Shown here: positions 2,863-58,831 of the stretch, one piece after another
Position numbering within the stretch: position 1 is the stretch's first letter
Layout of the letters: every line of letters starts with the position of its first letter
NCBI GenBank assembly: GCA_903813345.2
Contig: CAIIXF020000008.1
Location: 35,550,867 to 35,614,866 of the forward strand
Direction: 5' to 3'
Source of the DNA: Owenia fusiformis
Taxonomy: Eukaryota; Annelida; Polychaeta; Sabellida; Oweniidae
DNA: 64,000 bases
Position numbers and translations under genes: made by a program
The notes under the pieces: model-generated
The model's input: only the letters and a program-made list of their open reading frames with translations
Told to the model about the DNA's origin: nothing
Databases searched by the model: none

Positions 2863-3210
2863 AAATACCAGATCACTTTACGGAAATGAATTTTTCCTTT
2901 TTGGAATATAGGGTGTTCAACTAGATAACAGCAACGCCATGGGCTAGCAAATCCCACCGAACATCTAATACTTATCAGTGTCAGACAACACGGCTTTAAG
3001 TAGTCATGTCCCTAAATGGCCACAACATATCTCTTGCCAAAATATATTGAACAAAAAGATGATTCTTGTATGTTTTGGGATTTTGATGATCTAAAAACTG
3101 CTACTTAAATGGCAGAAAATGCAAATATTTGAAAAGACCAACATTTTTTTAATTTTTTGGAAAATGGCTCAAACAATTTCATTAAGTTATGAAAAATAAC
3201 ATTTAGATGA

Positions 3211-3760: not shown

Positions 3761-3769
3761 ATAAACTGA

Positions 3770-4565
3770 TTCTATTTTACTAAAAAGGCATTCACAATAT
3801 ATACCTGTATTGTCGACTAGTGAAATGTTTGTAGTCATATCTTAGTATTTACATATGAATTAGAGACTAGGCATATTTAGATAACATTAAATATAATACT
3901 TTAATCAAGGTAAAACTCCTGTTCAGTGTTTAAAGTTATTTGTATGCAGATGATACAAAAACAGTTTATGAAAATGTTGACATTATGTCAACTCATTTGA
4001 TTCCCTATTGGGAAGATGACAAAATGCCAAACAATTATGATTTCAATATCTCAACAAAATAATGTTGTTCATAAGCAATTGGTTCAATCAACCTTTTCTT
4101 TTATTATATTTTAACATGAATTGTTCAGTATTCCACAAAGCAATTCCACAAAGCAATTTCCCAATAACTCCTAATTTTAAGATTTAATGGATCACCAGCA
4201 GTCACGCTTATAAATTCTCATTGTAGGGCATTCCATGAAGTTTCTATGGAAAGATCCAGTGAACTGATGTTCATCTTACTTAATTGTGACAAAGTTTAGA
4301 GATATGATACATTTACTTTAAAAATACTAAAAGCATTTTGTTTTGTCCACTAAGTCAATATGGAATCATTCTTAAATTATCAAGGTGAAGTCAACTTCAT
4401 CAACTTCGAACCTGTCCTAAAAAAAACATAATGATTGAGCGTGGGAACCTATGATGGGTGAAGTTTGAAACCTTGTGAACCAAGAGTTCTTTACAGAATA
4501 TGATTTCAATACCAAATTATGAATAAATTTAAACCTGTTTTAATTTGGACATTGTTGACATCATT
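3770..4565. other. Downstream region of GFM2 (3' UTR and intergenic)
   Basis: No gene seen. It contains the minus-strand 3' UTR of GFM2 and a candidate polyadenylation signal at 4100-4105. Confidence 0.5.
4100..4105 (-). terminator. Candidate GFM2 polyadenylation signal AATAAA
   Basis: TTTATT on the plus strand reads AATAAA on the minus strand, about 460 nt beyond the GFM2 stop. It is a candidate by position only. Confidence 0.3.
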
Positions 4566-36367: not shown

Positions 36368-38377
36368 ATGAGCAAGAAAACTGATATAAAAAAGATATCT
36401 CCGCCTAACAAACGTCGAAGCCTTGATGAGATTGTGCAAGATATATATGAAGGGAAGCGCTATACTCCTCTAACATTGACAGGCCATAATAAATTATCTG
36501 AATCAATTGAAAAACCCATATCTAATGAAAATGAAGCAAAAATAACATCAAAGAAACATTCAGGAAACAAATGGATAAAGAGCACTGAAGAAGATAACCC
36601 TGAATCTGAATTTGAGCCGAAGCTAAATATCTCCGGAACAATGAACTCCCATGTACCCGAAAGCTCCAATATAAAACCATTGGAGAAATATATTGGTACA
36701 ATGCCATATACAATTGACAGGGATAGTGAATCCTGCATGTTTTTATGTGACTCTTCTAGCCAGAATAAAATGGACACTTTAGAGTCCCCTCCCACAAGTC
36801 TATTGCTCCCAGTCTCTTCAATCAATTTCAGCGACGTCAAAATGCACGAAGAGCTCAAAGAAGATGAATATTCATGTTATTCTCCAGAAACTATATCAAT
36901 TGATGGCGAAGGATATAGAAGCGAAATTGATGTGGATATAGAACCAGCCATTCATGATGACATTCAACAGCTGAATGATGCCAATGATTATGAACAGTCA
37001 AATGAATCTAAAGATAATGACATTAAATTAGCTGAATCTCCTAATAGCTGTGATGCTTTGTACAACATTGGAGATGTATTTGGAAAACTGAGTACATTAC
37101 ATCCAGATGTTGATAACAAAGGAGAAGATGACTTTAGAAATGGAGCTCTGAAAAGTCCAGATAAAACATACCAATGCCTTGACAGTAAGATAGAAGATCT
37201 ATCTCATTCTGGAAGTAGTGAACTTGAAGGGAAAGACACTATAGTAATAAATAAAGAAACAACTAAAACAAAGTCTGTAAAGGAAAGTACACTTACTCAT
37301 ACAAGATTGACTACACCTAACCATATGGCCTTGACAGAGAAAATTACATGTTCAGACTTCAAGAGAGACATTACAGTGAAGAAAGATCAGTTAATGAATT
37401 CAGAATCACTAACTGTAAATACTGCAACCTTTTCAGCACCACCTCAATTAAGGCGTTCTAGAAAAATGAAAATAACAAAAGAATTGGTAAATATTGTCAA
37501 AGAGAATAAAGTCTCAAGGCCACAGAGTGTTCCGCCAGCTATTGAAAGGACAAGGTCTTCCTCTCGGTACATGAAACCTTTGTCAAATGTCGTAACTTCA
37601 TCATCATTTGGTGCATCCAGGACAATTTCATATGACGACATCAGAGTGCGGTCAAAATCAGTTCCTCCAAGTCCAAGACTCATACTAAAGATTCCTGATA
37701 TAAGTAAAGGCCTTGGGCATACAACAATCAATGCCAGTATAGAAGGGGTCCAGTTTACTCCATCAACACCAAAGACAACTTATAACGATTTGGTCAATTG
37801 TTTACAAAAGCAGAGACATGAACTAGACCATACCTCAAACGCGAACACTAACTATGAGGTGAAAGATGATGATGTGGCTGATGATCATACAGAACACACA
37901 AATGATGATGATGAACACAATGAGAATGATAATGATGAGGAACTTGAGGAAATCATGAAAAACATAGAAGAACAAAACAAAGACGATAGTATCATTGATG
38001 AGGAAAACATTGTTTTAAGAGATGACACTACTCTGAGCATCTTTGATGAAGACACCATCAGTGTATCAAGTGATATTGACATAGACACAACAGTTGATAT
38101 TGATATAGAAGATGACTCAAGAGATCAAATCCATTTTCTCTCATCAGGACTTGACCTTGACGAAAACACTAATCAGAGTATAGATATGGGGATCAAAGCC
38201 AACATGAAGGAAGGAGATTTGCAAATTTCTCATGATCAAGATGAACAAAATGTAGAATTAACTCAAGACTCGGGATTCGACTCCATCTTCCAGTCTTTTA
38301 ATGAATCTCATTCCCAGATGGTGTCAGATGGTGTCAGAAGCTTTGAGGAGAATATGACCATTAACACACCAGAGCAG
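36368..38377 (+). CDS. Large gene, first coding exon: acidic Ser-rich region
   Basis: 670 codons, donor CAG|GTAAGA, phase 0. Basic head (SKKTDIKKISPPNKRRSLDE), then long acidic/Ser/Thr stretches, a basic patch with SRPQSVPP and RSKSVPPSPRL (SP/TP sites), and an Asp/Glu-rich run near residues 490-590. No folded domain recognised. Confidence 0.88.
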
Positions 38378-41300
38378 GTAAGAGATTAATTTCATGTTTC
38401 AATATTTTACTGACATAAATTATATTGACTCATAAGCTCTCCACGTTTGTCGAGTTTTCAGAAATATTATAAATTAAAAGTCAAGAAGAATTAAATAGAT
38501 ACTTACAGTATTAGTGATATTTCATTATATTTAATTCTCTCAAATGATTTGTAGGGGTTGTTTTTTTCATTTGGATTTTATATGATAGGGGGCCAGGGGG
38601 AGACAGGAATATGATTTGAAATATCATACAATTAAATTTCTCATTGACTTGTGCTGATAAAAATGATACCCCATATCACTAGTAATCCATACATTAAAAT
38701 GACATCACTTTTTGACATCACAATTGCCATTACATCAACACAATCAAGATTAACAATAGAGATGTTAATTAAGAAATATTACACGCTCACAGGTTCTCTT
38801 AAAAACATGTGACTTAACCTCCCTAATATTTTGACAGTGGTTGGTATTCTACTTTTGACATGAGATTTTATCAGTCTCATAGTCATTTCTTTTCTTTCCT
38901 ACCAGGTAGAATATGATGAAAACAATAATATAGAAGATGATTGGCAAGAGCCTCTTGGTGATGATATTAATGCAAACAGCACACCAAGTGGCAAATCCAA
39001 AGAGGAGAATCAAGAAGATGATGTTGCTCAATCAGCATGTAGCAATCAAGATAAACCTCCAAAAATAGAGAGAAAAAGTATGGTCATATCACCGTTTTCG
39101 ATCATGTCCCCGATAGACCCATATTCTTTGAGTGACTCAATGCGGCTATCACCATCCATGTTCATGTTTGATCCAACAAAAGCTGTAGCCCTAGATAGGC
39201 TATCCCCTACAGCATTGTTACTTGGGATTGAAGACAGCCAAGATGGTCAACAATGTCGACGATTATCAAGTTCACCTCCAGTGATTTTGGATGCAAGGTC
39301 TCTGAGGAGTGTATGTTCATCACTCTCTGGAAACTCATCACCTCTTGTGTCTTCATCCCCTCTATCAGGGCTATCACCTCAAATTACAGTGAACCATAAT
39401 ATCCACATTACAAACTCTTGTCCAAATGATAACAAGGAGAATGCAACACAAGCTCCAACAAGTATCCATACTACAGTTAACATCCCTCAAGCTGCACAAA
39501 CAAATTCCCAAAACACTGGAGTTCATTTTCAGAATCCGGTCGGTGCAACATCTTATAACCTTCAACAGTCTTCTGTATTACAGCCTCCAATTGGCTCATC
39601 TCAAATGTACATAATTGGGGCACCAGAGGGTGTCCCAACAGTTCCAGGGATATACTTAGATGCCCCACCCAAAGTCCCTACCTACTGTGCTATACCATGC
39701 GCCTGGAATCACATTGGAGTTCCTGTATCATATAGGGTGTGCTATATGCCATATAACCCCTCCATGGTAGGGTTCAGTCCAAAGCAAGCTTGTAATCCTC
39801 TTCTCCTAAACCTAAGTACTTCCAAACAGCCAAGTAGGGATCCTAGTTTCTCTGGAAAACAACCAAACCAGGAGCATTCTGTAAGTGCCGACCAAAACCA
39901 TGTGGAAGGAAATGGTATGGACGTAAAGCATGAGAAAGATGAACAGAACTGCCAAGTTAAACATCTTCAACCTAAAGATGATGAAATTATAGAAATAGCA
40001 AGTGGGGAAGCTAATGCTGTTGATATTCACAACTGGATTGAGACGCATGGTGAAAGGAAAATCTCTAGTCAACAGAAAAGAAAAGATTTAATCAAAGAAA
40101 CTTATGAAGTGAAGAAGGTACATGAAGGGAAAGATACAGGGAGAATGACACCAGCTCTTGGTAAAGCTTCACCTTATGATTCTGACACCAGTCAGGCAAA
40201 TACACTCAATGGCAGGATGACTCCAATTAACGACACAAGGAATAAATCAATGTATGGTAGGGTGACACCAGATGGTGTCAGGACCAAATCTGTGAGTAAC
40301 ATGATGACATCGCCTGATGTCACAATGAGCAATACATCAACTGGTAGAGCAACACCTTTTGGTTCTGGCTCTGATCCTATAAATGATAGAGTGACGCAAA
40401 TTGACACCTCAAAGAACCATTCTGTAAATGGTAAGCTGACACCAGTTGACATCGAAAGAAGTCAGCCCATAAATGGTAGAGCAACACCACTCAACATCGC
40501 AGCAAGCAGTTCGGATAGTGGGAGATCGACTCCTATCTCAATGAGTACAGACAATTTTATTGTGCCTACTATTAGAAAATCTAAGACTGTCCGGCAAATG
40601 ATTAAACTAAATAAGCGCAACTTGGAAGATTCAGAGTCGCCAACATCCAGAAAGAGGCCAAATTTAAATCGAAGTGTTTCAGCGCCACCTAATGCCCCAA
40701 AATGTATTGTTCCGTCCAGGGGAACCTCAGCGCCCCCTTGTGCACCAAGAAATACAAATCCCTCCCCAGGAATATCACCAATTCCTTCCACACAATCCCC
40801 CAGCATATTTCTATCACCAATTGGGTTCACTGGAGCTCTATCAACTGCTAGACATATGCAACAGCCATGTCCTATAATCCTTGCCCCATTCCCTAAAACA
40901 AATACCCAAAGCTCTTTCAAAGCTTCATCAAAAGCCCCAAGCCCTAGCACTAATTCAAATCCCCACCAGTCATCAAAATGTATCAAAATGGACAGTTCAC
41001 ATAGATTTGGAAATCAGACAACAGATATTGTCAACTCTATGCACAAGCTGATTCAGAAAATACCAAATATGGGGCCATACGAGGAATTCAACAACTCAGA
41101 TTTCACTCCAAATCTCGGCAATCTCAGAGATTTGGAAAACAGGGAATCGGTGAAGAATATGACTGAAGTGTTGATCGATGATAAGAAAGAGCCTGTTCTA
41201 ATGAGCACGACACAACCACACTTTCAATGCGAAAAGAACATCTTAGATGATGGTGCTTGTGATCTTCCTCCTGCATATACACTTGAAGGTATGGTATTAA

Positions 41301-44300
41301 GCTCATGATTTTTGTATATGAAAAACCATGAAGTCCTTATCTGAAACTTTCTTTTGTCTGTTTTACAATAAGGACGAACTGTGATTCAAACATACCTAGA
41401 CTAACTGCAGTTATTATGAATAAATTTGTTTCACCTTATGCTTAAATATTTACATTTCTTGAAATTTTGTGAAGTATGACTCACTGATATCTAATTATCT
41501 TTAACCGCCTATTTTAAATGACAAGATTATTTTTCTTCAATTCAAGATATCTTTAAAAACAGCCTCCCCAAGTCATGTGGTAACCTTTTTTATGAATTTG
41601 TTAAAATATTTTTCAGGAAGCTCCAAAGATGCCATGGCAACGAAACAATGGGGATTTTCAATGAGTAACCATAGCAACTCGCCAGCTTTTACATCCAGAA
41701 TTGCTCAAAAGCCAGTTGCAACAATCAAACCTAAGACAAAGACTCCAAACAAGCAACGATCACATTCTGCACCAATAACCATAGAAACAAACTCTTTGAT
41801 GTCACACCAATCTGGCGCATCAGTGGCTCAACTTGGTGTGTCAACATTGACTGAGTCTGGTGTGTCTTCCAACAAGCCCCCTAGGGGTTTGTTACATAGT
41901 CCAAGGAACCTGTCTCAAGTTACCTATGGTCAGCCATCAGCACTCCCATTTCCAAGAAACACATATTCCTTTGTCATAGATCAATTGTACACAAGCCAAC
42001 AAGGATCTAATCAACAAAGCTTGAACCAACAAGGCCTAAGCCAACAAGAACAAAGTCAACAAGGTCTTAACAAACATGGCTTGAGCCAACAAGGTCAATG
42101 TCAACAAGGGTTAAACCAACAAGGACAAAGTCAACAACGCTTGAACCAATACGGCTTTGACCAACAAGGACATAATCAGCAAGTTCTCAACCAGCAAGGA
42201 CAAAGTCAACAAGGACAACATAAACAAGGCTTTAGTGAACAAGAACAAAGTCAGCAACTTCTGAACCAACAAGGACAAATTCAACAAGCCTTGCACCAAC
42301 AAGGACTAAGTCAGCAACTTCTGAACCAACAAGGACAAAATCAGCAAGGCTTGAACCAACAAGGACAAAGTCAACGAGGCTTAAACCTACAAGGACAAGA
42401 TCAACAAAATCTAAATAAACAAGGCCAAGGTCCACAGGGTTTAAACCAACAAGGACAAAATCAGCAAGTCTTGACCCAACAAGGACAAAGTCAGCAAGGC
42501 TTGAACCAACAAAGACAAAGCCAGCAAAAATTGAATCAGCAGAAACTTAATCAGAGCATGAGCCAACAAGGCTTTAACCTTCATGGTTTTAACCTACAAA
42601 GTCAAACACTAAATTACTTAGCTTTGACTGCCTTATCTCAACAAAGCCCACAAGGCCTGCACCCTCAAGGGCTTACATTACAACATGTAAATCCAACAGC
42701 CCTGAATATTCCTCAAAAGTCACCAGGAATAAACTGCTTAATCCAACAGTCTTGTAATCTGCAAGACCAAAACAACAAAAGACATCAGGGTCTTCCTCAC
42801 CAACCTGTTGATCCAAAGGCATTTTCCCAAAATTGTGTGAACGTACAAACGCTCAACCAACAATGTCTCCCCCATCAAGCTATCAACCCACAGGACCTTG
42901 ATCATCCAGGCCTCTCAACACATACATTAAATTCACAGGCCTTCAACCAACAGGACCTTTCCCAGCACACTCTTAACCCACAGAAATTCAACCCTCAAGG
43001 GCTTTATCAACATACTTCTAATCCACAAGGCCTTTCTCAACATGCTCTTAACACAATGAGCTTCAACCATCAATGTCTTTCCAGGAACCCTGTAAATCCA
43101 ATGGGCAATATGGATCTTAACCATATAGACATGAACACTGAGGCCATTAACAACCAAGGCCTCACCAAAGAAGCTCTGAACTTACATAGCTTCATTCCTC
43201 AAGGGATTACCCCGCAAGGTCTTTCTCAAATCCCTACCCCACAGGGTCATACCCCACAAGGCATTACCTCTCAAGTCCCTACCCCTCAGGGTCTTAACCC
43301 ACAAGGCATTACCTCTCAGATCCCTTCCTCTGAGGGTCTTACCCCACAAGGCATTACCCCTCAAATCCCTACCCCTCGGGGTCTTACCCCACAAGGCCCT
43401 GCCCCACAGGGACTAACTCCACAAAGCATTACCTCTCAAGTCCCTACCCCACAGAGTCTTGCCCTACAGGGCCTTACACCACAAAACCTCTGTAGCCCTA
43501 CTCTACAAGGTCCCACCACACCAAGAATTTCCCTGCAAGGTCTGACCCCACAGGGCCCTATCCCACAAGGCCTGACCCAACAGGCCCCTTCCTTACAAAG
43601 CCTTCCCCAACAGGCCCCTTCCCTACAAAACCTTACCCAGCAGGTCCCTACCCCACAAGGCCTGACCTCACATGGCACTGTCCCACAAAGTCTTAACCAA
43701 CAGGTCCCTACTCCACAAGGCCTAACCCCACAGGGCCCTATCCAACAAAGTCTTACCCAACAGGTCCCTCTCCCTCAAGGCCTAACCCCACATGTCCTTG
43801 ACCTCAGTATGACAGGCCTGACACAGAGATCACTCAGCCAAAAAGATCTGGTTACCCAAGAACTGACTGAAAGACTTGCAGCTGCTGAGCGCACCCACAT
43901 CTCTGACCTGGCAGAAAGGGTCCAATTATTAGGTAAGTATCATTTGTAGTATACATTTTACATGTAGATTTGGTTAAGTTTAGCTTTTGGCAAACACTTA
44001 TTAAAGGCCATTTCATTGAAAAATAGTCATTAATTAGGAAAATGCAGTTTTTAAACCAATAAAATTTTGAATTTTCCAAAAAATAAGTTTACCAAAATCA
44101 GTTTTTCTTTTGAGAAATATTGCAAGTGTTATAAATCATATTATAATTTCCAGTGGTTATATAATATACCTGTTTATCATGTTATCAGAAAATTATATTT
44201 CTAAAACTCCTTGGAATTTGTCATACCCCTCCCTACTTCACATTAAAAAAAACTCTTCACAAATCATCTCTCCACTCTCCTTTGTCTTTATCCACCATTG

Positions 44301-47300
44301 ATTCTATACAATATTACAGAGCATTATGATCCCCAAGAGACCCCAGTGCGACATTCTACAGGCATTGTGCTACCCAGATTCAGGTCTGGTAAGGTGCCTT
44401 TGTCTTTATCCACCATTAATTTTATCCAATATTACAGAGCATTATGATCCCCAAGAGACCCCAGTTATACATTCTACAGGCATTGTGCTACCCAGATTCA
44501 GGTCTGGTAAGGTGCCTTTGTCTTTATCTACCATTGATTCTATACAATATTACAGAGCATTATGATCCCCAAGAGAGCCCAGTTATACATTCTACAGGCA
44601 TTGTGCTACCCAGATTCAGGTCTGGTAAGGTGCCTTTGTCTTTATCTACCATTGATTCTATACAATATTACAGAGCATTATGATCCCCAAGAGAGCACAG
44701 TTAGACATTCTACAGGCATTGTGCTACCCAGATTCAGGTCTGGTAAGGTGCCTTTGTCTTTATCTACCATTGATTCTATACAATATTACAGTGCATTATG
44801 ATCCCCAAGAGAGCACAGTTAGACATTCTACAGGCATTGTGCTACCCAGATTCAGGTCTGGTAAGGTGCCTTTGTCTTTATCCACCATTGATTTTATCCA
44901 ATATTACAGAGCATTATGATCCCCAAGAGAGCCCAGTTATACATTCTACAGGCATTGTGCTACCCAGATTCAGGTCTGGTAAGGTGGACTGCAAGACTTT
45001 CAAACCCAAACATTTTGATCTACAAAGTCTGCAGATTGGAACATACAGGGTAAGTTTCAGACCATGGGTGTAGATTTTGCCAAATGGAGACAATGGTACT
45101 ACCTGGTTAGTTCTCTCATATGTTTAGAATTACGGGTGATTTGATAAAGTACATGTTGTTTGATGGGATCTCTACCCCATTGAAATGAGAAAGCAAGTTA
45201 CCCAATTGAAATGTGAAAGCAAAGGTATCGCATTGAAATGTGAAGGTAAATCACCCACTTGAAATGTGAAAGCAAAGTACCCAATTGAAGTATGAATTTA
45301 AAAAGTACCCAATTGAAATGGGAAAGCAAAGTATCAAATTGAAATGTGAAAGCAAGTACCTAATTGAAATGTGATAGCAAGTACCCAATTGAAATGTGAA
45401 AGCAAGTACCCAATTGAAATGGGAAAGCAAAGTATCCAATTGAAATGTGATAGCAAGTATCCAATTTAAAATGTGATAGCAAGTACCCAATTGAAATGTG
45501 AAAACAAAGTGTCCAATTGAAATTTGAAAACAAAGTGTCCAATTAAAATATGAAAGCAAGGTACCGAATTAAAACAACTTTCACTTGAAAATAAGGAAAC
45601 ACAGAAACACATTTTAAATGTTAAATCATGATACTTAGTTAATTTACTTTACAACTTAACCTGAAACTTTTCAGATGGATTATGATCCTTGTGACAAGAA
45701 CAGGATTGCAAAGTTGAAGGTCATTTTTAGTAAAAGGCAAGTGTCATTTTTTATGTTAGTAAACAAAATAATTATTGCCCCCCCCCCATTTGGGACATTG
45801 GGACAAGAATCATTTCCTAAGTGACAAGCATAGTTTGTGATAAGAGGAGTAATAAATTGACGAGGAAATTTCCAAAGTGATAGAAGTAAATTTCATAACT
45901 AGACTCAAATTGTTTATTTAAATATAGTTTGACAAAAATTGTCTACAGACTTTATCAATAAAGTAATAGTAAGTTTATTTGTTATATGGGAACTATCATT
46001 TTACTTATCATTCACTACAAAATAGAAATGTATTAACTATTTACATCTAACTGTATTATGTTTTTTCTTTTGATAGGCGAATACACTACGATTTTCAGAT
46101 GAACTCTTCCAAGGATGCCTTGCAGACCCATACTAGGAATATGGCAAATATCGAAGTAGATTTCGAATCAATTGTAGGCTTTACCATATTTGGAAGGGAG
46201 ATTGTCATTGAAGTAAATCAGCCACCATACATGCGTATAGGTCAAAGAATGAAAGATGGATTTGATAGTGAGAGAAGGAGTGTGAACCAGTTACTTGGAG
46301 TGGATTTGACGAAGGGTCAAATTGAGACTGTTCCTTACCATAGGGTATGTTATATGATTCTCCAACCCCCAAGGAATTTTTTGTGTCTAAAATTCTTATT
46401 TAATACCTTTTTTCAATCGTATTTCAAAATGTATAAAGAATATATAGAGCCAACAAAAAGTACTAAAAATCAAGCCCAATGTCCTCTTTAAGAACCCTGT
46501 TTCTTATCTTACTATATTCACTTGGAATCCATAGAACTAATATCCTTATCACTTTTCTGTTTGTTGAGACCCAATCAATTTGAGTTTTTCTGAGATAATG
46601 AGGATTTCAGCAAGAGTGTATTGACTTAACATGAGGATATCATCATATCATCTTGGAAATACAAAATCCTCATCATCTCATAAAGAGCTCAATTTGATCG
46701 AGTCTCAACAAAAAGTAGTATTGGTGGAATCCAAGATACTGAGGACATTTGGTGTACTACTGTTTGCATTTAGATCAAATGCAGCTTACTTTTTTAACAC
46801 TCATCATACATATATTTGTTTGATTCACAGATAATTTCTACTTCTTTTTTATTATAAGAAAACAATAATTAGTTAAATTCATTATCAATAATTTTGTTTA
46901 TTCTGTGTGTTTTTTAATTGTCACATTAAAATTCAAAAGCTATCAAAGTTTGTCAAAGTTAATTGTTCTTTTATATTGGGCATATCGTCATGTCAACTTT
47001 TTTGAAAGAATAAAAATAGTTGTTTGGTTTGGCAATTGTGTTTGGCCAATGGTACCATGTTACACAATCAGCATAGGAAGGACATACCGGACCGTTGTTA
47101 TAAAGACCAAACAAATTTGAAAAATGGCAAGCTTTATACCACCATGCCCCGTCATATAGTATAGCACAGTTGTCAGTGCTTGTTGTGTCATGATCATTGT
47201 CCTTTGTACTAAATTGCATACCATTGTGGTGAGCAAGAGAATCCCCAGCATCTCCACTGTATCCACCAATCGTCAGTTTGTAGTTGGATTTTGCGTCGCT

Positions 47301-50300
47301 CACATTGAATGTGGAATATTCGGCATGGCGTGTTTCATTTTGCGGAGGCCACATGGTAAGATTAATTCGGAGTTTGTAGTTCCCCTGTTTTAATAAACCA
47401 TGGAGGTTGTCAAGACCCATGAAATATTCTCCTGCCGGGTTTCCGAATCCTGATTGATAATCAGCCCAGCCCTTGTAGAAGTCAACACGCCCATCAAAGC
47501 GCCTGGCCATGTAGACACATCCCCCATTGCAGTACACTCTGAATGAATTTTGTCCCAGTGGTTGGATTGTTTTTACACCAGTAAAGCTTGTATCATCTCT
47601 ACAGTCTCTTGGATATGTAGCTGGAAAATTATATAAAATTGTGTGAATCACCAAGTTATTTTCTTAGCAACCGGTTAGCATTAGCATATGTAAAACTTGT
47701 AATATTTGTAGAAGATGTCATCTGTCTATCAATATGTGCTGGAAAATTGTATTGTATAAATCGGCAATACAAAGAGAAGTCATCTTTTCATTAATTTGTC
47801 TAGCCTTTTGTTCATCTGTCTGGGTGATATCTCAAATACAGTAGTTGATGGATTAGGTTCAAATTTTAAAGGCATTTTCACACTTGAAACATTTTTCATG
47901 TGGCTTATGCTTTATGGACAGAGGACCTCTGTTCAAGAAGGAATTTGCAATATGGCCACCATTTTCATGAAAATTAAGTCTTTGATAATCCGAATACAAT
48001 TTTAGGGATTTGGTTCAAATTTTATTATTAGCTGGTGACTTACATGTACATGTCGGTTCCTAGGAATATGTATGCACAAATGCCAAAGGGAAAGGACAAA
48101 AAATTGTTACAGAACACATAAAGAAAAAGAAAACATCTAAGAGTAAACCAATCATGGCCTCTTCTCAAGATGAAATTTTCAAGATGACTTTTTCAAGATA
48201 GGATATTGTTTTGTAAAAACCTACAACCTATAACCTTATCAATCTAACCGATACATCATCATCTTTGATGTAGAAAATCGCGATTGGAGGGAGTAGAGGG
48301 TTGTTCGACATTATTTCTTTTCACGTTAGATCATGGTTTTTGGAAATACGGGGTCTTTTTTCTTATTAGAGGTTTACACTTAGAGTTTGTTATTCTTGCT
48401 AGGTTTATTTACGGTTTTGTTCATTTTCCTTTTTCCTTTGGCACTTGTGCTCTACTGACTGTTATTATATCATTACCCCATTGAAAACATTACGCTGTGA
48501 TTACTTACCCGTTGGTTCACACTTTGAATCCTGCATCTTTTCCAAGAGATCTTTTACTGAGGCTATGTCACTTTTCATCTGATTGACATCATTTTTGATT
48601 TCTTCATCATTTTTTATCTCTTCAATGTCATTTTTGATTTCCTCGACATCAGCTTTGGTTTCTTCAATGGTTCTCCTAGCCATTGTTACATTGTTTTGTA
48701 TCTCGACCAGGTTGACCTGAAGGGCGTCATCCTCCTTTCTGATGCAGCAACTCTTGGTTTCAGTTTTCAGATCATTCAATTGTGTGACAAGGTTTTCAAT
48801 ATCTTTTTTCTTGCATGTAGCAGTGTTCTTTCTTTTCTTCTTTGCTTCTGCATTGTCGCCAAGCGTGATGAAAAGTACTATCAGGAGTACTTTAAGATGC
48901 ATGGCTTTTTCAAAATGTGACTTGACTTGTTGTTAACGCAGCTAGGTTCTGTTGCATTGATTGCTTTGAGTTAACATTTGTGGTAAAATGCCTTTTGCCT
49001 AATTACCATCAAAAACATATAATCACAATATGTCTTCATAATGTTTTCTCTGGCATTCTTGTATTTGTTTAAATCATGAATATGTAAAATAATTGTCCCA
49101 ACTAACAAAGTTTTGTAGGATCATGGGGTTCTCTCGAAAACCCATGGTAAGATATAGTGAAGTCATCTTACCAATTATGACTTAAATATTAAAACAGTAT
49201 GGGTAATAACCTTTAATTAATATAATACTGGATATGACAATTGAAATAAAAATCAATCTGTAATCTTCCTTTTTGGTGTAGATGTTCCACATGTTAATCA
49301 AAATTGATTTTTGTGTAAAGATTGTATGGTTCTGATGCTCTTGAATGACACATATGAGCATATTCATACAAATATTTGAGCGCTTAAAGTGGCAAAAGGG
49401 GAAGTGTTCAAAAAACAGTTAGAAAAGAACATTAAGAGAATCATTTGTCATAAGGAGAACCCCTCTTACCCCCCCCCCAACATTCAGAAACAACTAACAT
49501 AAAATAGGTGGAAGAGTTACTGAGGAAAAAGTTTCAGCTGGTGATAGCTAACCAGTCTTATTCTAATTGTTTAGTTGGCTATGATGACAACATGTTGCAA
49601 TTTTCTAATGGTTTTGTTTACATTTCAAAGACAATCCTTCATATTTTAGTATTAATTTATGCTTCATCAGGTAATGGTACTCATATCAATATTTTTGCTT
49701 TCTTTGTTGAATAACTTTAAATCCCCACATGTGGGAAGATTTATACTTCTGTTTATCTCTCAGAGAGAAAGCTTTTGGATTTTTATGTTTTCATCAATAA
49801 GTTTTAATAGGCACTCATCGCACATGTTTTGGTAAGTGTTTTAAATTTTGTTCTAAGGTTGTGTTTAACTTGTTCAAGATTCTGTATACATGATCTGTTG
49901 CTCGCATGGCCAATTCAAAATAAGGTTGAAATTGAAGAATACATACATGGTGTCCCAAAAGTATTTTACCTAAATGAAAAGGATTACTGTCTTTTCTTCA
50001 TTATTTTTTCTTCAGTGTCACCTTTGAAACTTACCTTACTTACCAGTATAATCGTTATAGTGAAGTCTGACAATTTGGAATGCGTTCCAACCAGAAATGG
50101 ATATATTGAACAAAAAAGGGGTTTCTCGGGAAATTTTTTTTCCTGTTTACCTTGGTGACAACTTGAATTGGTGAAATTGGGGTCCTCACTAAATTTGCCA
50201 AGTTAAAATAGGCCGTGGGTGCCTTTAGTCGAAGTGGTCATTATAGGTATTACTTTAAACAACTTGAATCTACCTTTACGCAAGAGTGTAATAGACTTGA

Positions 50301-53300
50301 AATAAATGTAATTTTAGCTGACATTGAAATCGGATGTTGGGATACTGTTGCGTCGCAGCTTGGAACTGTTTGATCTACGATTCTGCCTCATGCTGCGTCT
50401 GCCTATCTTCGAAGATGAAAAGAAAATATTGAAGGTAAGAAGATCTATATGTGGGGTAATAATTATAAAGACAATGATCTCCCATACATTAAGGCAAGTG
50501 ATGCTGTGAAACTTGAAATTATGTGTGTACTTACCGTATCTAAAGACCCATTTGCAAAATCGGGAAATATTGCGAGGGAACTTCCTTACCCACCTTGGTC
50601 AGTTACTCGATCAATTACTTGCTCGGCCTCCTCATTAACATTTTACCACCCATACTAGTCTGTTAGTCCCCTCCACTCATATTGATGAATTAGTTACCTT
50701 CCCTTGCCCATCTTGGTCAATCATCCCCCCCCCCCAGCTTACCCATCTTGATTGATCAGTCACCTTTCCCTCATATTAGTCTGTAGTCACCTCTAGCCAT
50801 ATTGGTCAATTAGTTACCTTCCCTCGCCCATCTTGGTCAATCATCCCCCCAGCTCACCCATCTTGGTCAGTCACTCAAATACTGTGATCAATGAGTAAAA
50901 ACCTCTATATATGATGAAAACTTCTGTAGTTTACAAACACATGTAATTGGTTGACATTTATAGCCTGTGAACAAGCCAACATTTGCTTTCAACATTCCTG
51001 CAGAATATGGCATGCAGAATACGAGTGTAGCAGATATGCCTAAGCATTTACTTAGCTATGGAGGTGGGTATATTATTTAGTATTGGGAACTCATAAAATA
51101 CACTTGAGATTAAATAAATTCAAAATATACTATAATAACCCAGATGCGAATAGATAGTTACAAGTTTCATCACCAAGTGGCTAATTTGGTAGATACCATG
51201 ACATATATAGTATATACTAGAAATCACATTTTCAAATAAGATCAAATTTTCAAAGTTGATCAATGCTTTTTGAAACCACATATCTACAGGGTGTCAAAAA
51301 ATATGTTCTCTCCTTAATTTCAAAAGTATAAACTTTTATGCATAGAAGTGCATCTTGAGCGAGTCATCTGAAACTTGTGGAGTTGCTCCATGAAGCCTAG
51401 TTTTATTGAATTTTGCCAATTCATATATCATGCGGACAAAAAGTTAAGCAACATTATGTGGATGCTAAAGCTAAGGGGGAGAACATATTTATTTGACACC
51501 CTGTAGATGTTAATTTACATGTAGATTTTAAATATGATATCTCTTTGACTGAATTTTTAATGACGTTAATCAAGATCAATCGCAAGTGATAGACTTTGAT
51601 ACAATCCTTCATTTGTGTAAATATTGTAGTTTGAGAAAGTTGAATGCTTCAGTATGGTCTGCAGATCCCAGTCGAAAATGGTTATCAAACAATATGTAAA
51701 TCATTAAGTAATAGGGGGCACCATACACCTTTCAGTGGTGTCTCGCTCCCTTCATCATCTTTGTATTGTTGTATGCATATTTAATAAATTGAAATTGAAA
51801 TTGAAAAAAACAAAAAGATTGTTATCAATTTATGTAAAAATCCCAAAAAGCCATTAAATTTAAAAAGCAAAATGCTTGCTAGTTAAATACCAAAAGAGTA
51901 AGCCATGACAGGTACAAATATTCTTCAGATACCCCCATCAATTTACCACGCAAGGATGTCCCCACCTGCAAATGCATTATGGGATGCGATCTAAACTGTC
52001 AATGCACGCAAGATCAGAACCTATGTAGCATAGCATGTGGCTGCCACCAACAGTGTGCCAATCCATTGAATATTTTACAATCTGAAGGGATAGTGGTCTC
52101 CAAGGCAACACTTGACAGTTGCCTGATGGGAAATATTTACAAGGTTAGTAGTTGAAAAAATACTAAGGCAAGGCTTCGTTAATATTCTGGTTCTATTTTA
52201 GGCCCAAGTTCGGATGCTTTGATTTTCTTTAAGTAATTTTTGCTTAGCAGATTGATAGCATTATATTTGGGAAGATTTCCAATTCTTCAATTCAATTAAT
52301 CCTGGGATATTGATTTGTATGTCATCACCAGAAATGGGAACATTATAGTCTCCAACGTTTTTGTGGATGGTGTTCGATGGTTTGTGTCTGTAACAAATGG
52401 CAGGTTGTGACATTTTGCATGTAAATGCCTTGTATATTTCCTGGGATATTTTCCTTTTTACCTGCATAACCAGGGCAAATATCACACTTCTCGTCTGTCA
52501 TGCATCTTTTTTTCTCAATGTTTTGCACTTGTTGTTCAGCAAATGAGGGTCAATGTATTTGTACCTGGATTTGAACATACCATTAGGGGGAGTGTTGAAA
52601 TAAGGATATACAGTAAAAACCTGTCTTTGTGAACACTGAACACCTCTCTCTAGTGAACACCTGTTCCTCGTGGACACCTTCCTCCACACATACTCTTCTT
52701 CTGTATAGATTACCCTCTCTCAATGTAAAATAATTAGATATGGCTTGAAATGAAATTTTACTGCAAAAAAAGAATTGTCTCAAAGAAGTTTCAAGATACA
52801 CCTCCCAAAATGACTTTTATATCAGTTTTTGCCAACATCGATAGCTGCATGAGCCAAAAAATATTTTTATTGCCAGAAATGTTTTTGTTTTTCAGACTCC
52901 TCGTATACTGCAAAAACTCTGGTCTTCGCTGAAATTTCCGTGCTGCAATAAGGTGTCCATCTTGAAATTCTGCATCCCAGGAATTATCACATGCGTCAAA
53001 TGTCGAGTCCAGTATGTGTATTCCTGGTGTAAAGGTAATCACAAATGTACATATCCTGCATCCGATGCCTCGGTCATATTTGATCTACGATGGCCGTGAC
53101 TTCCCGAAATCGAGAGAAAGTGGCATAAAATATAGCGATAAGCAGTACAATCATAACGTAGATTTTCTATATTGAATTTTTGAAGCTACAGCTGCCTTAG
53201 AGCAAATGTGACGGAGGCTTTATGGAGCTGTCTCACTTACGCTGTGTGGACTCGCAATTCGCCAGTGTGGATACTTTGGGGCAGATGGTGGGGCATTACA

Positions 53301-56300
53301 TGGATACACTGTTGGCAAAACAAATGATTTTACAGCAGAATATCCCCCATCACCAAATGCAAAAATTAATGCCAAAAATTAGCCACCGATAGCGAACTGT
53401 GAACACACACAGCCAATGACAGCTACTTAATATTTAAATATTCAAAAATTAGATAGAGTTCAATTATTTATTTGTTTCACAGAATAAATAAAGACTGTTG
53501 CAAGTTATTGCATAATTTAAAAAAAATTCTTATTTTATTAATTTCTCAAAATCGTGTTGATATTGTATGCCAAGTTTGTTATATTAGCTTTAGGTCTCAT
53601 GGAAGTTAACAGGAAATGACAAAACAGGAAGTGACAATTTTTTGGGCATTTTTAGACATTTTTTGAACAAAGATAACAGAGTTCTGGTTTGACCTCCAGT
53701 CAATTTAACTGTTTCCACATATCATCTACATGACCAGGATCACAATGTGCATGGTCAGAATGACCCTAAACATGATGAAATAACCTTTTTAGTCCCTTGA
53801 AAGTGTGACTGAAAAAAAGCTAAAAGTAGGAGCTAGGGAAGGTCACTGAACAGAATCTTTTGAATTTTTCAGAAAATGTGCCCAATATAATGCTCTAACT
53901 GATACAATCTTTGAAATTTTAGAAAATTGTCGTAAACAAAAATGGCGGTCATAAAAAGGAAAATAGATCGCTTTTCAAGTCAGTTTTTTCATTTTTTTTC
54001 TCTTTCTATGAATGGTATCAAATGTTCAAAGATTGTACCATTTAGAGCAATATATTGGGCACATTTTCTGAAAAATTCAAAAGATTCTGTTCAGTGACCT
54101 TTCCTACCTCCTTCTTTTAGCTATTTTTCAGTCACATTTTCATAGGGCTGAAAAGGTTATTTCATGATATTTAGGGTCATTCTGACCATAAACATTGTGA
54201 TCCTGGACCTGTAAATGGTATCTGGAACTAGTTGAATTGACTGGAGGTCAAAAGTGAACTCTGTTATCTTTGTTCAAAAAATGTCTAAAAATGCCCAAAA
54301 AATTGTCACTTCCTGTTTTGTCATTTCCTGTTAACTTCCATGAGACCTTAACATAGTTTAAATTTAATAATAAAATTAGATAATTATTGTTTAATACTTA
54401 GATAAGAACACATTATTTAGAATAATTGTAAGCCATTTTGTCATTGTATAATTTAAAAAAGTCTTTTTATTTTATTAATTTCTCCGAATCATATTGATTT
54501 TATTTTGTGTATTGTATGCAAAGCTTGTTACATTAGCTTAACATAGTTAAACATTTAATAATGAAATTAGATAATTGTTTAATACCTAGATAAGAACACA
54601 TTATTGGTAAACCATTAATTTGACTAAAGTTAATTTATTGTATTCTAATTCACGCAGGTTTTCACTCGACAATGTGCATGCTTTTGTAAGTATCTGAATC
54701 TTAGTTTTCAAATATCTTGAGGGAAAGAAATGAGATTTATGTTTTCTGAGATTCTGGATATAGGATTTATCCAAGGGAAATATTGATATGAAGGATCCAA
54801 GGGACCGATGGAATATAATGACATTTTCTAGTATTCTATATCCAATAAATATTTACATGTTATGCAATTGGTATCCAATCCAGCCTAAGGAATTTTATGC
54901 CATTTTTAACAGCCATGTAGATGATAAGCCTAAAATCTGTAACATGTGTAGTTTTCACCTCTGTCTGTCCATCTGTGTCTCCAACCGTCCATGTGTCCAT
55001 CTGTTTTGCAAATCATGTACTAATATATCATTGCTCTTCTCTTTTAGGCTCCTACTATTTAATTGTCTGCTAAGCAGGTTTTATTCTGGAAAAATTGAGT
55101 GGATAACTATTTACCTTGTTTATTTTAGCTAGAATACATGTAGAATAAGACATATATAACAATGACAATTACAACAGACAATTAATTTGTAAGGCACTTA
55201 AGTACTGCGTCTGCGTGTATGGATGGAATTTGCTCTCTGTTTTGATGCATGCCCTAGAATCTTTTTACATGTGCCTGTTTAAACACTTTTCTACAGCTTA
55301 TGATTGTGTGTACATGTAGTTATAAATCCTCGAAAATTATTCTTTTAAATTGAAATATAGAGCATCATTTTCTGGCTACTGCGTTTCACAAGTTATTCTG
55401 TGATTGACTTTTTGATTATTTGAGCAATTTTTCAATAATTCTTTACTGATAAGCTACATTTATAAAAGTATCGTGCAGATTAAGTTATCATTTTTTGTAG
55501 AATTTTCGGCCAATTTTCAAAGTATATATGCAATAATTATAACTATAAGTTTCATAATATGTTTTGTTATATAATATATTATGCCTACTTCAACTTTATA
55601 GGTGAGTTACTCACATATCAAGGCCAGCCAATCCACTGTGCTGCATGTGGTAGATGTAAGAGGAATGATGGGTCAGATAGCGACAACCAATGCCAGGTTA
55701 GATTTGTTTCTTCTGTACTGTACACTTATTCTACTTCTCTAAGAGGTCATCTGTACATTTCTCTAATAGGTCATCTGTACATTTCTCTAAGAGGTTGTCT
55801 GTACATTTCTCCAAGAGACCATCTGTACATTTCTCTAAGAGGTCATCTGTACATTTCTCTAAGAGGTCATCTGTACGTTTCTCTAAGAGATTATCTGTAC
55901 ATTTCTCTAAGAAGCCATCTGTATATTTATTCTAAGAGACAATCTGTACATTTCTCTAAGAGGTCATCTGTACATTTCTCTAGGTCATATGTACATTTCT
56001 ACTTCTCTAAGAGGTCAATTGTACATTTCTCTAACAGGTCATCTGTACATTTCTCTAGGTCATATGTACATTTCTACTTCTCTAAGAGGTCATCTGTACA
56101 TTTCTCTAACAGGTCATCTGTACATTTCTCTAGGTCATATGTACATTTCGATTTCTCTAAGAGGTCATCTGTACATTTCAACCTCTCTAAAATGTTATCA
56201 GAAACTATAAAAACTAATGGCTCTTTTTCTTGTAGAAATGCCAGTCCATAAAGCATGTAGAAGATGTTACAAGTCCAACCATACCAACTCCACCTCCTCT

Positions 56301-56334
56301 GGTACTTGGAGACATCTTAAACCCATTGTCCTAA
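36368..56334 (+). CDS. Large unnamed protein: low-complexity N-terminus, PH-like (HOY1/TRF2-type) and CXC cysteine domains, up to 2725 aa
   Basis: Exons: 36368-38377, 38906-41288, 41617-43932, 44320-44388, 44438-44506, 44556-44624, 44674-44742, 44792-44860, 44910-45049, 45675-45736, 46077-46344, 50318-50434, 50964-51063, 51929-52143, 54658-54685, 55602-55696, 56236-56334; 8178 nt, every junction in phase, TAA at 56332. Residues 1-2237 are disordered-looking: acidic Ser-rich, then GR.TP repeats, then Gln-rich repeats. Residues about 2385-2550 (LQIGTYRMDYD, IFSKRRIHYDF, IEVDFESIVGF, VIEVNQPPYM) match, as I recall it, a PH-like domain of plant HOY1/TRF2-type and fungal proteins. Then comes a CXC cluster (CKC..C..CQC..C..CGC) and a second cluster (CACFC..CAACGRC..CQKC). 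I do not recognise a named gene; nuclear or DNA-linked function is inferred only from CXC. Confidence 0.8.
38906..41288 (+). CDS. Large gene, second coding exon: GR-x-TP repeat region
   Basis: Acceptor CTACCAG|GTA, donor GAAG|GTATGG, phase 1. Carries about ten spaced copies of a G-R/K-x-T-P motif (GRMTPALG, GRMTPIND, GRVTPDGV, GRATPFGS, GKLTPVDI, GRATPLNI, GRSTPISM) and SVSAPP motifs. These look like phosphorylation-type or short linear motifs. No catalytic domain. Confidence 0.88.
41617..43932 (+). CDS. Large gene, third coding exon: Gln-rich repeats
   Basis: Acceptor TTTTTCAG, donor TTAG|GTAAGT. About 41990-42560 encodes a 7-15 residue repeat around LNQQGQSQQG; about 43190-43800 encodes a second repeat around TPQGLTPQGITSQ. 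The end (LTERLAAAERTHISDLAERV) is a predicted amphipathic helix. Repeats are diverged at the DNA level, so selection on Gln/Gly content is plausible. Confidence 0.87.
44279..45049 (+). repeat. Six-copy 118-bp array of mini-intron plus 69-bp exon
   Basis: Units begin at 44279, 44397, 44515, 44633, 44751 and 44869, each starting CCTTTGTCTTTAT. Exons 44320-44388, 44438-44506, 44556-44624, 44674-44742 and 44792-44860 are 69 bp, phase 1-1, bounded by ATTACAG and CTG|GTAAGG. Introns between them are 49 bp with a TTGAT/TTAAT branch-like word. The sixth copy (44910-45049) reads through the GTAAGG as Gly-Lys-Val and continues to CAGG|GTAAGT. Each extra exon adds 23 residues (HYDPQE..PV.HSTGIVLPRF, then RSG). 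Without splicing the frame meets TGA, so the array must be spliced or skipped. Confidence 0.85.
44910..45049 (+). CDS. Large gene, terminal copy of the duplicated exon, leading into the PH-like domain
   Basis: 140 bp; continues past the duplicated part with KVDCKTFKPKHFDLQSLQIG and ends TYR, phase 0. FDLQSLQIG matches the first strand of the PH-like domain. Confidence 0.85.
45167..45577. repeat. Degenerate 25-bp tandem repeat within an intron
   Basis: About 16 imperfect copies of CCCAATTGAAATGTGAAAGCA-type sequence (21 b: CCCAATTGAAATGTG then AAAGCA) in the intron 45050-45674. Frames on the minus strand are repeat products. Confidence 0.85.
45675..46344 (+). CDS. Large gene, PH-like core exons (45675-45736 and 46077-46344)
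   Basis: The first exon (62 bp) ends AAAAG|GCAAGT, a GC-AG intron of consensus type; the GC donor is the only one that restores phase with GATAG|GCGAAT. The second exon encodes RIHYDFQMNSS, the strand pair IEVDFESIVGFTIFGREIVI, EVNQPPYM and LTKGQIETVPYHR, donor AGG|GTATGT. Confidence 0.82.
46897..46902 (-). terminator. Polyadenylation signal of the fibrinogen-domain gene
   Basis: TTTATT on plus is AATAAA on minus, about 70 nt past the stop codon. Confidence 0.5.
46971..48902 (-). CDS. Secreted coiled-coil protein with C-terminal fibrinogen-related domain (FReD), 347 aa
   Basis: Exon 1 is 48509-48902 and exon 2 is 46971-47620 (donor ACGG|GTAAGT, acceptor TTTTCCAG|CTAC, phase 1). Residues 1-20 are a signal peptide (HLKVLLIVLFITLG core). 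Residues about 30-125 form a Lys/Glu coiled coil with a CC pair, suited to oligomerisation. The FReD spans about 132-347: TYPRDC, ARRFDGRVDFYKGWADYQSG, GLDNLH, LTIGGYSGDAGD, HHNGMQFSTKDNDHD (Ca-site acidic residues), NCA, AWWYKACHFSNLFGLY, WYHW. The usual GWTV.QRR is replaced by CVYMARR. FReDs bind glycans or acetylated groups and act in invertebrate immunity or clotting; the ligand is unknown. It lies antisense inside the intron 46345-50317 of the large gene. Confidence 0.93.
48910..50317. other. Remaining part of the intron containing the FReD gene
   Basis: Upstream of the FReD gene; no further exon supported. Open frames at 49508-49714 and 49829-50158 lack matching splice phases or recognisable domains. 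Confidence 0.45.
50318..50434 (+). CDS. Large gene, end of PH-like domain
   Basis: 39 codons, phase 0-0, acceptor TTTTAG|CTG, donor AAG|GTAAGA. Reads LTLKSDVGILLRRSLELFDL, then RFCLMLRLPIFEDEKKILK, a helix-rich end as expected for a PH-like fold. Confidence 0.78.
50640..50880. repeat. Two-copy C-rich tandem repeat in an intron
   Basis: TTACCTTCCCT(T/C)GCCCATCTTGG..CAATCATCCCCCC appears near 50691 and 50813 along with GTCACCT and CATATTGGTCAATTAG words. Confidence 0.6.
50964..51063 (+). CDS. Large gene, linker exon
   Basis: Acceptor TTTATAG|CCT, donor GGAG|GTGGGT, phase 0-1. Encodes PVNKPTFAFNIPAEYGMQNT, then SVADMPKHLLSYG; Pro-rich and without a known domain. Fits phase with both neighbours. 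Confidence 0.72.
51287..51503. mobile_element. 217-bp MITE, CAGGGTGTCAAA termini, TA duplication
   Basis: CAGGGTGTCAAAAAATATG at the left matches the complement of the right end, with TA at 51285-51286 and 51504-51505. Tc1/mariner-like. A related fragment starts at about 13830. Confidence 0.75.
51929..52143 (+). CDS. Large gene, CXC-domain exon
   Basis: Acceptor TTCTTCAG, donor AAG|GTTAGT, phase 1-0. Cysteine spacing C-x-C-x3-C-x3-C-x-C-x5-C-x3-C-x-C-x3-C-x-N (CKCIMGCDLNCQC then CSIACGCHQQCAN) matches the zinc-binding CXC module of tesmin/TSO1/LIN54 and MSL2, which contacts DNA. Only one module is seen, whereas tesmin-type proteins usually have two. Confidence 0.78.
52340..52440. repeat. Dispersed repeat with TGTAACAAATGGCAGGTTGT word
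   Basis: Related sequence at 59505-59725, 60572-60735 and 63388-63500 (TATGTCACCACC, TTTTTTGTGGAC, TGTGACATTTTGCATGTTAA). Copies are diverged and have no coding capacity. Confidence 0.6.
53505..54605. repeat. Direct duplication, first copy interrupted by a foldback transposon
   Basis: The unit at about 54440-54605 (ATTTTATTAATTTCTC, GTATGCAAAGCTTGTTACAT, AATGAAATTAGATAATTG, AGATAAGAACACATTATT) is present also as two halves: 53505-53590 and 54350-54420. The break is exactly where the inverted-repeat element sits. Confidence 0.8.
53591..54349. mobile_element. Foldback transposon, arms of about 330 bp
   Basis: GGTCTCATGGAAGTTAACAGG (21 b; GGTCTCATGGAAGTTAAC core) at the left pairs with the right end GTTAACTTCCATGAGACC, and the arms pair nearly throughout (for example GACAAAACAGGAAGTGACAA, AAAGATAACAGAGTTC). 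The loop is about 100 bp at 53930-54020. TTA flanks both ends, a PIF/Harbinger-like target. No frame. Confidence 0.82.
54658..54685 (+). CDS. Large gene, 28-nt microexon
   Basis: Acceptor CACGCAG|GTT, donor TTTT|GTAAGT. Encodes VFTRQCACF plus one base; joins the CXC exon in phase 0 and the next exon as TGT (Cys). Needed to keep the frame. Confidence 0.68.
55602..56334 (+). CDS. Large gene, last two exons with second cysteine cluster and stop
   Basis: Exons 55602-55696 and 56236-56334. They read ELLTYQGQPIHCAACGRCKR, then NQCQ|KCQSIKHVED and a Pro-rich tail ending LGDILNPLS. With the microexon the cluster is C-x-C-x-C..C-x2-C-x2-C..C-x2-C, a probable zinc site. Confidence 0.8.
55729..56190. 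repeat. 24-bp minisatellite in the last intron
   Basis: About 19 copies of TCTCTAAGAGGTCATCTGTA-type units (CATT completes it). The long open frame with an ISLRGHLY repeat is a by-product of the 24-bp period. Confidence 0.9.
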
Positions 56335-56361
56335 AGACTCCTTCATCAAGAGATGAATGGT

Positions 56362-58790: not shown

Positions 58791-58831
58791 TGAGAGAAAC
58801 ACTTTAAAAAAGATGGCAGTAAAACATCAAA

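What the first reader, a model, noticed from the sequence alone, without database searches (positions are those of the whole stretch)
44279..45049. Tandem array of six intron-exon units: exon and intron gain by 118-bp duplication
Seen: six copies of a 118-bp unit, each with an ATTACAG acceptor, a 69-bp exon that is phase 1-1, and a CTG|GTAAGG sequence acting as donor for a 49-nt intron. In the terminal copy the same GTAAGG is coding (Gly-Lys-Val) and the exon goes on. So the donors of the upstream copies come from exon sequence brought next to a copied intron 3' end. The period is 118 (not a multiple of 3), and reading through meets a stop, yet the exon size keeps frame for any number of copies. 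Known: intron gain by tandem duplication of AGGT-containing segments has been proposed in animals. Inferred: 1-6 copies of a 23-residue module could be made by alternative splicing just before the PH-like domain, and copy number may vary between individuals.
Basis: partly seen in the sequence, partly recalled or inferred. Interest (0 to 1): 0.88.

Follow-up and report, generated by a model that had tools for sequence, protein, structure and literature searches.

The report
Minisatellite of spliceable intron–exon boundary copies
Six tandem copies of the start of one exon and the intron end before it sit inside an animal gene; this genome holds several such boundary repeats, and here, unusually, every copy carries plausible splice signals in the right reading frame, so the gene could gain or lose small protein modules by changing copy number.

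Summary
In detail: six indel-free 118-bp copies (44279-44986), each intron 3' end + ATTACAG + 69-nt phase 1-1 exon piece + CTG|GTAAGG, the last copy running on as coding exon 44910-45049. My deduced host gene is a complete 11-exon, 2608-aa frame (36368-56334). All 32 inclusion patterns of the five upstream copies stay open; every micro-intron retention hits a stop. The donor outscores 7 of the gene's 10 deduced donors. The interpretation needs changing. This is a 'mirage': a minisatellite across an intron/exon boundary, known in amphioxus, where mRNAs are reported to splice normally (PMC3087553, PMC3902484). I found eight more such arrays in 5 of 18 myosin genes sampled from the same 498-Mb genome, so the phenomenon recurs here. 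Special is the strong, in-phase donor: the three arrays of the same layout have none above 3.12 bits. The 49-nt introns are doubtful: the shortest of 34 estimated introns is 126 nt. Skipping every second copy gives 167-nt introns, also in frame, predicting 1-3 modules. Splicing itself is untested.

The parts
44279..44986 (+). Tandem array, six copies of a 118-bp unit (intron 3' end + exon 5' part; the last 8 nt, GTAAGGTG, are coding in copy 6)
44320..44388 (+). Copy 1 exon-like piece, 69 nt, phase 1-1 (EHYDPQETPVRHSTGIVLPRFRS)
44438..44506 (+). Copy 2 exon-like piece (EHYDPQETPVIHSTGIVLPRFRS)
44556..44624 (+). Copy 3 exon-like piece (EHYDPQESPVIHSTGIVLPRFRS)
44674..44742 (+). Copy 4 exon-like piece (EHYDPQESTVRHSTGIVLPRFRS)
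44792..44860 (+). Copy 5 exon-like piece (VHYDPQESTVRHSTGIVLPRFRS)
44910..45049 (+). Terminal copy = exon 4 of the deduced host gene, 140 nt; GTAAGG at 44979 is coding (GKV)
44389..44437 (+). First of five 49-nt potential micro-introns (GTAAGG...TTACAG); the others at +118 steps up to 44861-44909
   Evidence: splicing not tested
44362..44388 (+). Piece behind a second in-phase acceptor (TTCTACAG|GC), 42 nt into the exon part of each unit (shown for copy 1)
   Evidence: frame tested for the terminal copy
44374..44389 (+). 6-bp hairpin CCAGAU-UCAG-GUCUGG ending on the +1 G of the donor; same sequence in all six copies
41617..43932 (+). Upstream exon 3 (Q-rich), ends in phase 1 at TAG|GTAAGT
36368..56334 (+). 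Deduced host gene, coding part: 11 exons, 2608 aa with the terminal copy only, 2723 aa with all five upstream copies
   Evidence: 2609 and 2724 characters including the stop
45675..46344 (+). Exons 5 (45675-45736, GC donor) and 6 (46077-46344), weakly like PF24818 (PH_TRF2_HOY1)
   Evidence: below cut-off

Best explanation
The array is a minisatellite ('mirage') that grew across the intron 3 / exon 4 boundary of a large animal gene. Seen directly: the last copy is continuous with the exon; the five upstream copies are near-identical, partly shuffled duplicates of the intron end plus the first 77 nt of the exon; each carries the same acceptor and a strong GTAAGG that is coding in the terminal copy, so each is a complete acceptor-exon-donor cassette that keeps frame. 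Inferred: the array is recent and unequal exchange changes its copy number. Also inferred (about 0.45): some upstream cassettes enter part of the mRNAs. Because 49 nt is short for this genome, I expect mostly non-adjacent joins (donor of copy i to acceptor of copy i+2 or later, 167 nt or more), giving 1-3 copies of the 23-residue module rather than a full run of six. The confidence below is for origin and splice competence; rivals 1 and 2 share the origin and differ in use.
For: Array anatomy and mosaic variation: (four-gamete conflicts at 4 of the 45 pairs of variable sites). All six copies differ, which argues against simple assembly duplication. 11-exon frame with matching phases. 32 of 32 inclusion patterns open; 5 of 5 single retentions and 5 of 5 read-through cases meet a stop. 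Donor 9.35 bits (recalled weights): 11 of 998 GTs in the 20-kb transcript reach it (3 deduced donors, 6 array copies, 2 others), none in the other coding sequence (7,717 exon positions scanned). Recurrence in the genome: eight further boundary arrays in 5 of 18 myosin genes. The three of them with the same layout have no donor above 3.12 bits, against 9.35 here. Possible branch A in TTGAT/TTAAT with 30 nt before it and 18 nt after it (sequence); a 56-nt human intron with 27 nt between donor and branch site is spliced (PMC8363638, passages). Same layout, shown spliced by RNA-seq, in potato (PMC4974935).
Against: No transcript data. In amphioxus, mirages, many of whose units carry AG/GT, were reported not to disturb regular splicing. 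In this genome arrays with good donors also sit in myosin genes, where the conserved motor should allow only one copy (125-bp unit AAA|GTAAGT 9.45 bits; 83-bp unit 7.79 bits). The shortest of 34 estimated myosin introns is 126 nt and of the host gene's ten 328 nt. The array acceptors are middling (4.4-7.5 bits) and the donor lies in a hairpin. Substitutions show no sign of coding constraint: 4 of 5 variable codons include amino-acid changes, while 48 of 207 possible single changes would be silent.
Confidence: 0.78

Rival explanations
1. Silent mirage: the same minisatellite, but the five upstream copies are ignored and exon 3 is always joined to the terminal copy (977-nt intron), as reported for amphioxus mirages.
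For: Amphioxus Adh3, globin and TnC mirages reported without aberrant mRNA (PMC3087553 section 16; PMC3902484 passage). Eight boundary arrays in myosin genes of this genome must mostly be bypassed for a functional motor (inference). In L017 one copy each of the 83- and 91-bp exon pieces, joined, matches the myosin profile without a break (positions 219-287). 49-nt spacing is short here.
Against: Unlike the three arrays of the same layout, each copy has a donor stronger than most deduced ones and a complete in-phase exon; exon definition would be expected to recognise at least some copies.
Confidence: 0.42
2. One reading: all or most copies are spliced as tandem exons through 49-nt introns, giving up to six modules as a regular product.
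For: Complete cassettes; 32 of 32 combinations open; branch geometry comparable to a spliced 56-nt human intron, and human introns of 43 and 49 nt are described as validated.
Against: Smallest introns are 126 nt in 34 myosin pairs and 328 nt in the host gene. The 34-pair sample could hide introns bridged by a profile match.
Confidence: 0.13
3. Assembly artefact (false expansion of one or two copies).
For: None directly; raw reads are not available here.
Against: All six copies carry different combinations of ten variable sites; similar arrays recur elsewhere in the assembly.
Confidence: 0.04
4. An old tandem-exon cassette kept by selection (repeat module or mutually exclusive exons).
For: A 60-nt stretch (second half of the exon piece, donor, first part of the micro-intron) is invariant in all copies (p 0.01 with ten sites, 0.04 if the three adjacent sites count as one).
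Against: Copies differ by 1-8 of 118 sites, as expected for a recent array; 4 of 5 variable codons change the amino acid; variable columns are 6 of 69 in exon pieces and 4 of 49 in intron pieces.
Confidence: 0.03

Closest known systems
[quoted passage not shown]
   Same: In BflGb6: units of 150-160 bp spanning intron 3' end + exon 5' part, 6 and 3 copies in two haplotypes, homogenised copies, many units with AG/GT (PMC3087553 section 16). PGBD5 has 60- and 108-bp repeats over splice sites (PMC3902484 passage)
   Different: There splicing was reported as regular; here every upstream unit has a strong, in-phase donor and a frame-neutral 69-nt exon. This genome has 12 chromosome-sized contigs and seems not to be a lancelet (inference)
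[quoted passage not shown]
   Same: Duplication of intron 3' side + exon 5' side; cryptic GTAAG of the exon becomes the new donor; 10 nt (here 8 nt) of the new intron come from the exon
   Different: One duplication, with outgroups and 106 RNA-seq reads over the junction; here five extra copies, 49-nt spacing, no RNA and no outgroup
Internal tandem repeats at exon-intron boundaries of human segmental-duplication genes (PMC2812944, passages)
   Same: Minisatellite expansion at exon-intron boundaries can create novel introns and alternative transcripts
   Different: On average 30-bp units in recent human paralogues; here a 118-bp unit with a whole cassette in a locus found once
Rogers AGGT duplication model / vertebrate ATP2A1 (Hellsten 2011, known to me through PMC4974935; the paper itself is not held)
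   Same: Tandem duplication creates splice sites
   Different: There the intron comes from exon sequence and the protein is unchanged; here the acceptor is inherited from an intron and the exon piece is duplicated too

Membership tests
Mirage (intron/exon-boundary minisatellite) | Head-to-tail copies that span an exon/intron boundary | tested here: met
   boundary from a deduced gene model, no transcript
Mirage (intron/exon-boundary minisatellite) | Authentic boundary at one end of the array | tested here: met
   Copy 6 continues into exon 4 with open frame
Mirage (intron/exon-boundary minisatellite) | Homogenisation / exchange among copies | tested here: met
   4 of 45 site pairs fail the four-gamete test; repeated mutation not excluded
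Mirage (intron/exon-boundary minisatellite) | Length polymorphism between haplotypes | not testable with these tools
   One assembly only
Mirage (intron/exon-boundary minisatellite) | Regular splicing not disturbed | not testable with these tools
   No RNA data
[quoted passage not shown]
   Acceptor from intron 3, donor from exon 4 codons G-K-V
[quoted passage not shown]
   Protein database off; the tool says this genome has no relatives held
[quoted passage not shown]
   No transcripts
TRF2/HOY1 PH-like domain (PF24818) | Score above curated cut-off | tested here: not met
   12.5 bits against 24

The most novel reading that the evidence does not exclude
In an animal genome, probably not a lancelet, that often throws up boundary minisatellites, this array is one that has crossed from silent mirage to coding: a copy-number-variable, frame-neutral exon cassette in which alternate copies are spliced (167-nt introns between every second copy), so that individuals and tissues differ in how many 23-residue modules precede the C-terminal part. 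It would be intron and exon gain caught in progress, with its silent sister arrays in the same genome as controls.
Probability: 0.35. Interest if true: 0.82.

Novelty: new variant of a known kind. Interest (0 to 1): 0.58.

Why it matters
How new introns and exons arise is an old question with few dated cases. Here the donor, the acceptor and the branch region have visible sources, the duplicates are only 1-8 differences apart, and a small sample of the same genome already offers eight other boundary arrays; the three of the same layout lack a usable donor. Set side by side, they would show which signals turn a silent repeat into spliced exons. It also warns gene annotators that predicted tandem exons in such genomes may be mirages.

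Tried and rejected
Relatives: the protein database was switched off. A scan of viral contigs with a 134-residue piece gave 2 pattern matches, none confirmed. PDB and Pfam gave nothing above threshold for the C-terminal part. So conservation of the terminal exon start could not be tested.

Retrocopy as evidence of splicing: the search found no second copy of exon 4 elsewhere in the genome, so none is available at that similarity.

Selection on the module: 4 of 5 variable codons change the amino acid and exon and intron parts vary alike; the clustering of variable sites is only mildly unusual. RNA structure: the whole array folds worse than all 20 shuffles (z 3.58) and no Rfam family matches 43900-45700. 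The donor hairpin leaves accessibility at 0.25-0.43, inside the 0.20-0.59 of the ten deduced donors.

Enrichment of arrays at exon boundaries is not claimed: arrays of period 25 or more cover 7.1% of 19 myosin loci and 12.8% of the window, so some boundaries would be hit by chance.

Strength of the myosin controls: exon pieces at seven of the eight arrays match Myosin_head: L020 (1.6e-18) and L017 260-bp (5.4e-12), L022 (5.1e-10), L043 (1e-5), L019 (0.0022) and the joined L017 83- and 91-bp pieces (1.5e-6). L043, L019 and the joined piece are below Pfam's curated cut-off, and the 83- and 91-bp pieces alone had no myosin match. The L040 piece (122-bp array) matches no family and rests on frame, splice signals and place in the gene. 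Splice boundaries there are deduced by eye. In L022 only the last few exon bases are in the repeat. Grouping of the 23 loci into 18 genes is by position, and most genes are covered only in part; at least one further matched place (C7:30868657) was not fetched.
Full report
What is there. The window holds six head-to-tail copies of a 118-bp unit at 44279-44986 with no indels. Ten columns vary, four in the intron part and six in the exon part, and all six copies are different. Each unit is an intron 3' end (CCTTTG...ATTACAG), 69 nt of exon sequence, and 8 nt GTAAGGTG. The last copy runs on without a break as exon sequence to AGG|GTAAGT at 45049.

The gene. Joining 11 exons, deduced by eye from frames and splice signals, gives one open frame of 2608 residues, with phases that agree at every joint and GT-AG sites except one GC donor at 45737. 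The array sits between exon 3 (41617-43932, glutamine-rich) and a C-terminal part that has no family above threshold; the best lead is the TRF2/HOY1 PH-like domain at 12.5 bits against a cut-off of 24. A cysteine-rich exon follows at 51929-52143. With the five upstream copies as exons the frame is 2723 residues and still open. All 32 inclusion patterns are open. Retaining any one micro-intron (5 of 5), or reading on from any upstream acceptor (5 of 5), meets a premature TGA soon after the next acceptor.

Splice signals. With recalled human-like weights, CTG|GTAAGG scores 9.35 bits; 7 of the gene's 10 deduced donors score lower. Of 998 GTs in the transcript, 11 reach that score: three deduced donors, the six array copies and two others. 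None of the other coding sequence has one (7,717 exon positions scanned). The six array acceptors score 4.4-7.5 bits, the terminal one 7.5; the gene's other acceptors score 3.7-13.6. A second acceptor 42 nt further in each unit (TTCTACAG|GC) scores higher than the first in 5 of 6 copies and, tested in the terminal copy, keeps frame. The donor lies at the foot of a six-pair hairpin, the same in all copies; its predicted accessibility is within the range of the deduced donors.

The short spacing. 49 nt would be far below the host gene's own introns (328-4619 nt) and below 34 introns estimated between neighbouring myosin exons in the same genome (shortest 126 nt). Introns that short could have been bridged by a profile match and missed. 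A TTGAT/TTAAT has its A with 30 nt before it and 18 nt after it in the 49 nt (sequence). Human introns of 43, 49 and 56 nt are described as spliced (PMC8363638, passages seen). But adjacent splicing is not needed: donor of copy i to acceptor of copy i+2 is 167 nt and in frame. Without adjacent copies there are 8 patterns, with 1-3 modules (my arithmetic).

The array in its genome. The window lies at C8:35550867-35614866 of an assembly of 498 Mb in 525 contigs, and a search with the 140-nt exon found only this locus. Of contigs C1-C15, whose lengths I saw, C1-C12 are 31.9-62.2 Mb (about 477 Mb together) and C13 is 0.66 Mb. That fits the annelid Owenia fusiformis (505.8 Mb, 12 chromosome-scale scaffolds; PMC9977687, passages); this is a guess, not a test. 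To measure introns I fetched myosin genes, and these turned out to hold boundary arrays of the same kind. In one gene (L017/L040): 83 bp x 7 (exon 3' end), 91 bp x 12 and 260 bp x 4 (intron 3' end + exon start), and 122 bp x 15 (a whole 103-nt exon with 19-nt spacers). In four others: L020 61 bp x 4.5, L019 41 bp x 4, L022 34 bp x 4, L043 125 bp x 9. That is eight arrays in 5 of 18 genes, most genes covered in part, 23 loci and 147,635 bp examined. Exon pieces at seven of the eight match Myosin_head, three of them above and four below the curated cut-off; the L040 piece matches nothing. The 83- and 91-bp exon pieces, one copy of each joined, match the profile without a break (219-287), as expected if one copy of each is used. 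A myosin motor should not accept extra copies, so these copies must mostly be bypassed (inference). The three arrays with the same layout as the window's (91, 260, 61 bp) have best donors of 1.96, 1.94 and 3.12 bits against 9.35; the whole-exon array of L040 has 4.74. Two arrays of exon 3' ends do have good donors (125 bp: 9.45; 83 bp: 7.79). So boundary repeats seem to be ordinary here, and the window's one stands out among those at exon starts by its donor and phase.

Age and exchange. Copies differ at 1-8 of 118 sites, and four of the 45 pairs of variable sites show all four combinations, as exchange between copies would give. Changes show no coding constraint: four of five variable codons include amino-acid changes. 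A 60-nt stretch without variation is mildly unusual (p 0.01-0.04).

What is known. Tandem repeats across intron/exon boundaries are called mirages in amphioxus. BflGb6 has 150-160-bp units with 6 and 3 copies in two haplotypes; RT-PCR suggested that splicing is not disturbed; and the authors propose that such units could become real exons (PMC3087553 section 16; PMC3902484 passage). The potato RdRp case shows the same layout with one duplicate and RNA support (PMC4974935 results). Human internal tandem repeats at exon-intron boundaries can yield novel introns (PMC2812944 passages). Two library searches with the word mirage (15 and 3 papers listed) brought up boundary mirages only for amphioxus, judged from the listings and the two papers opened; eight others on intron gain, tandem exons, short introns and the likely species listed, by title and start of abstract, no tandem cassette array like this one besides the papers named here. 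Subscription papers are not covered.

Judgement. I hold the minisatellite origin as near certain and the capacity for in-frame splicing as shown on paper. Whether cells use it is open, about even. The finding is a new variant of a known kind, of more than usual value because sister arrays in the same genome make a ready comparison.

Noticed in passing
L017:2290-2881, 3019-4110, 5427-6523; L040:1-1826; L020:2336-2608; L019:3656-3821; L022:4665-4800; L043:1812-2933: Eight further tandem arrays across exon/intron boundaries in 5 of 18 myosin genes sampled from the same genome, both at exon starts and exon ends; one repeats a whole 103-nt exon 15 times with 19-nt spacers.
   Followed up: partly
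window 46971-47663 and about 48501-48932, minus strand: A fibrinogen-related gene (Fibrinogen_C, E 3.5e-52; the second exon by eye) lies inside the 4.6-kb intron 46345-50963 of the host gene, on the other strand.
   Followed up: no
window 11507-13135 (+) and 16871-18352 (-): Two similar single-exon frames, one matching Exostosin_GT47 (8e-36), the other alike by eye, apparently nested in introns of an elongation-factor-G-like gene on the minus strand (one exon checked; extent 4566-33280 by eye).
   Followed up: no
G000:C9:37986009-37994334 (-): Twelve myosin-head matches to the same profile stretch (positions 18-84) in a row, perhaps a large set of alternative exons of a muscle myosin.
   Followed up: no
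window 56361-58804: 97-bp unit repeated 25 times, starting 26 bases after the host gene's stop codon, probably in its 3' untranslated region.
   Followed up: no
window 45675-45688: Exon 5 begins ATGGATTATGATCC, close to the array exon start AGCATTATGATCC (both read -YDP-); chance or an older duplication.
   Followed up: no
window 41996-43792: Long glutamine-rich coding repeats (units of 15, 30, 45 bp) inside exon 3 of the host gene.
   Followed up: no
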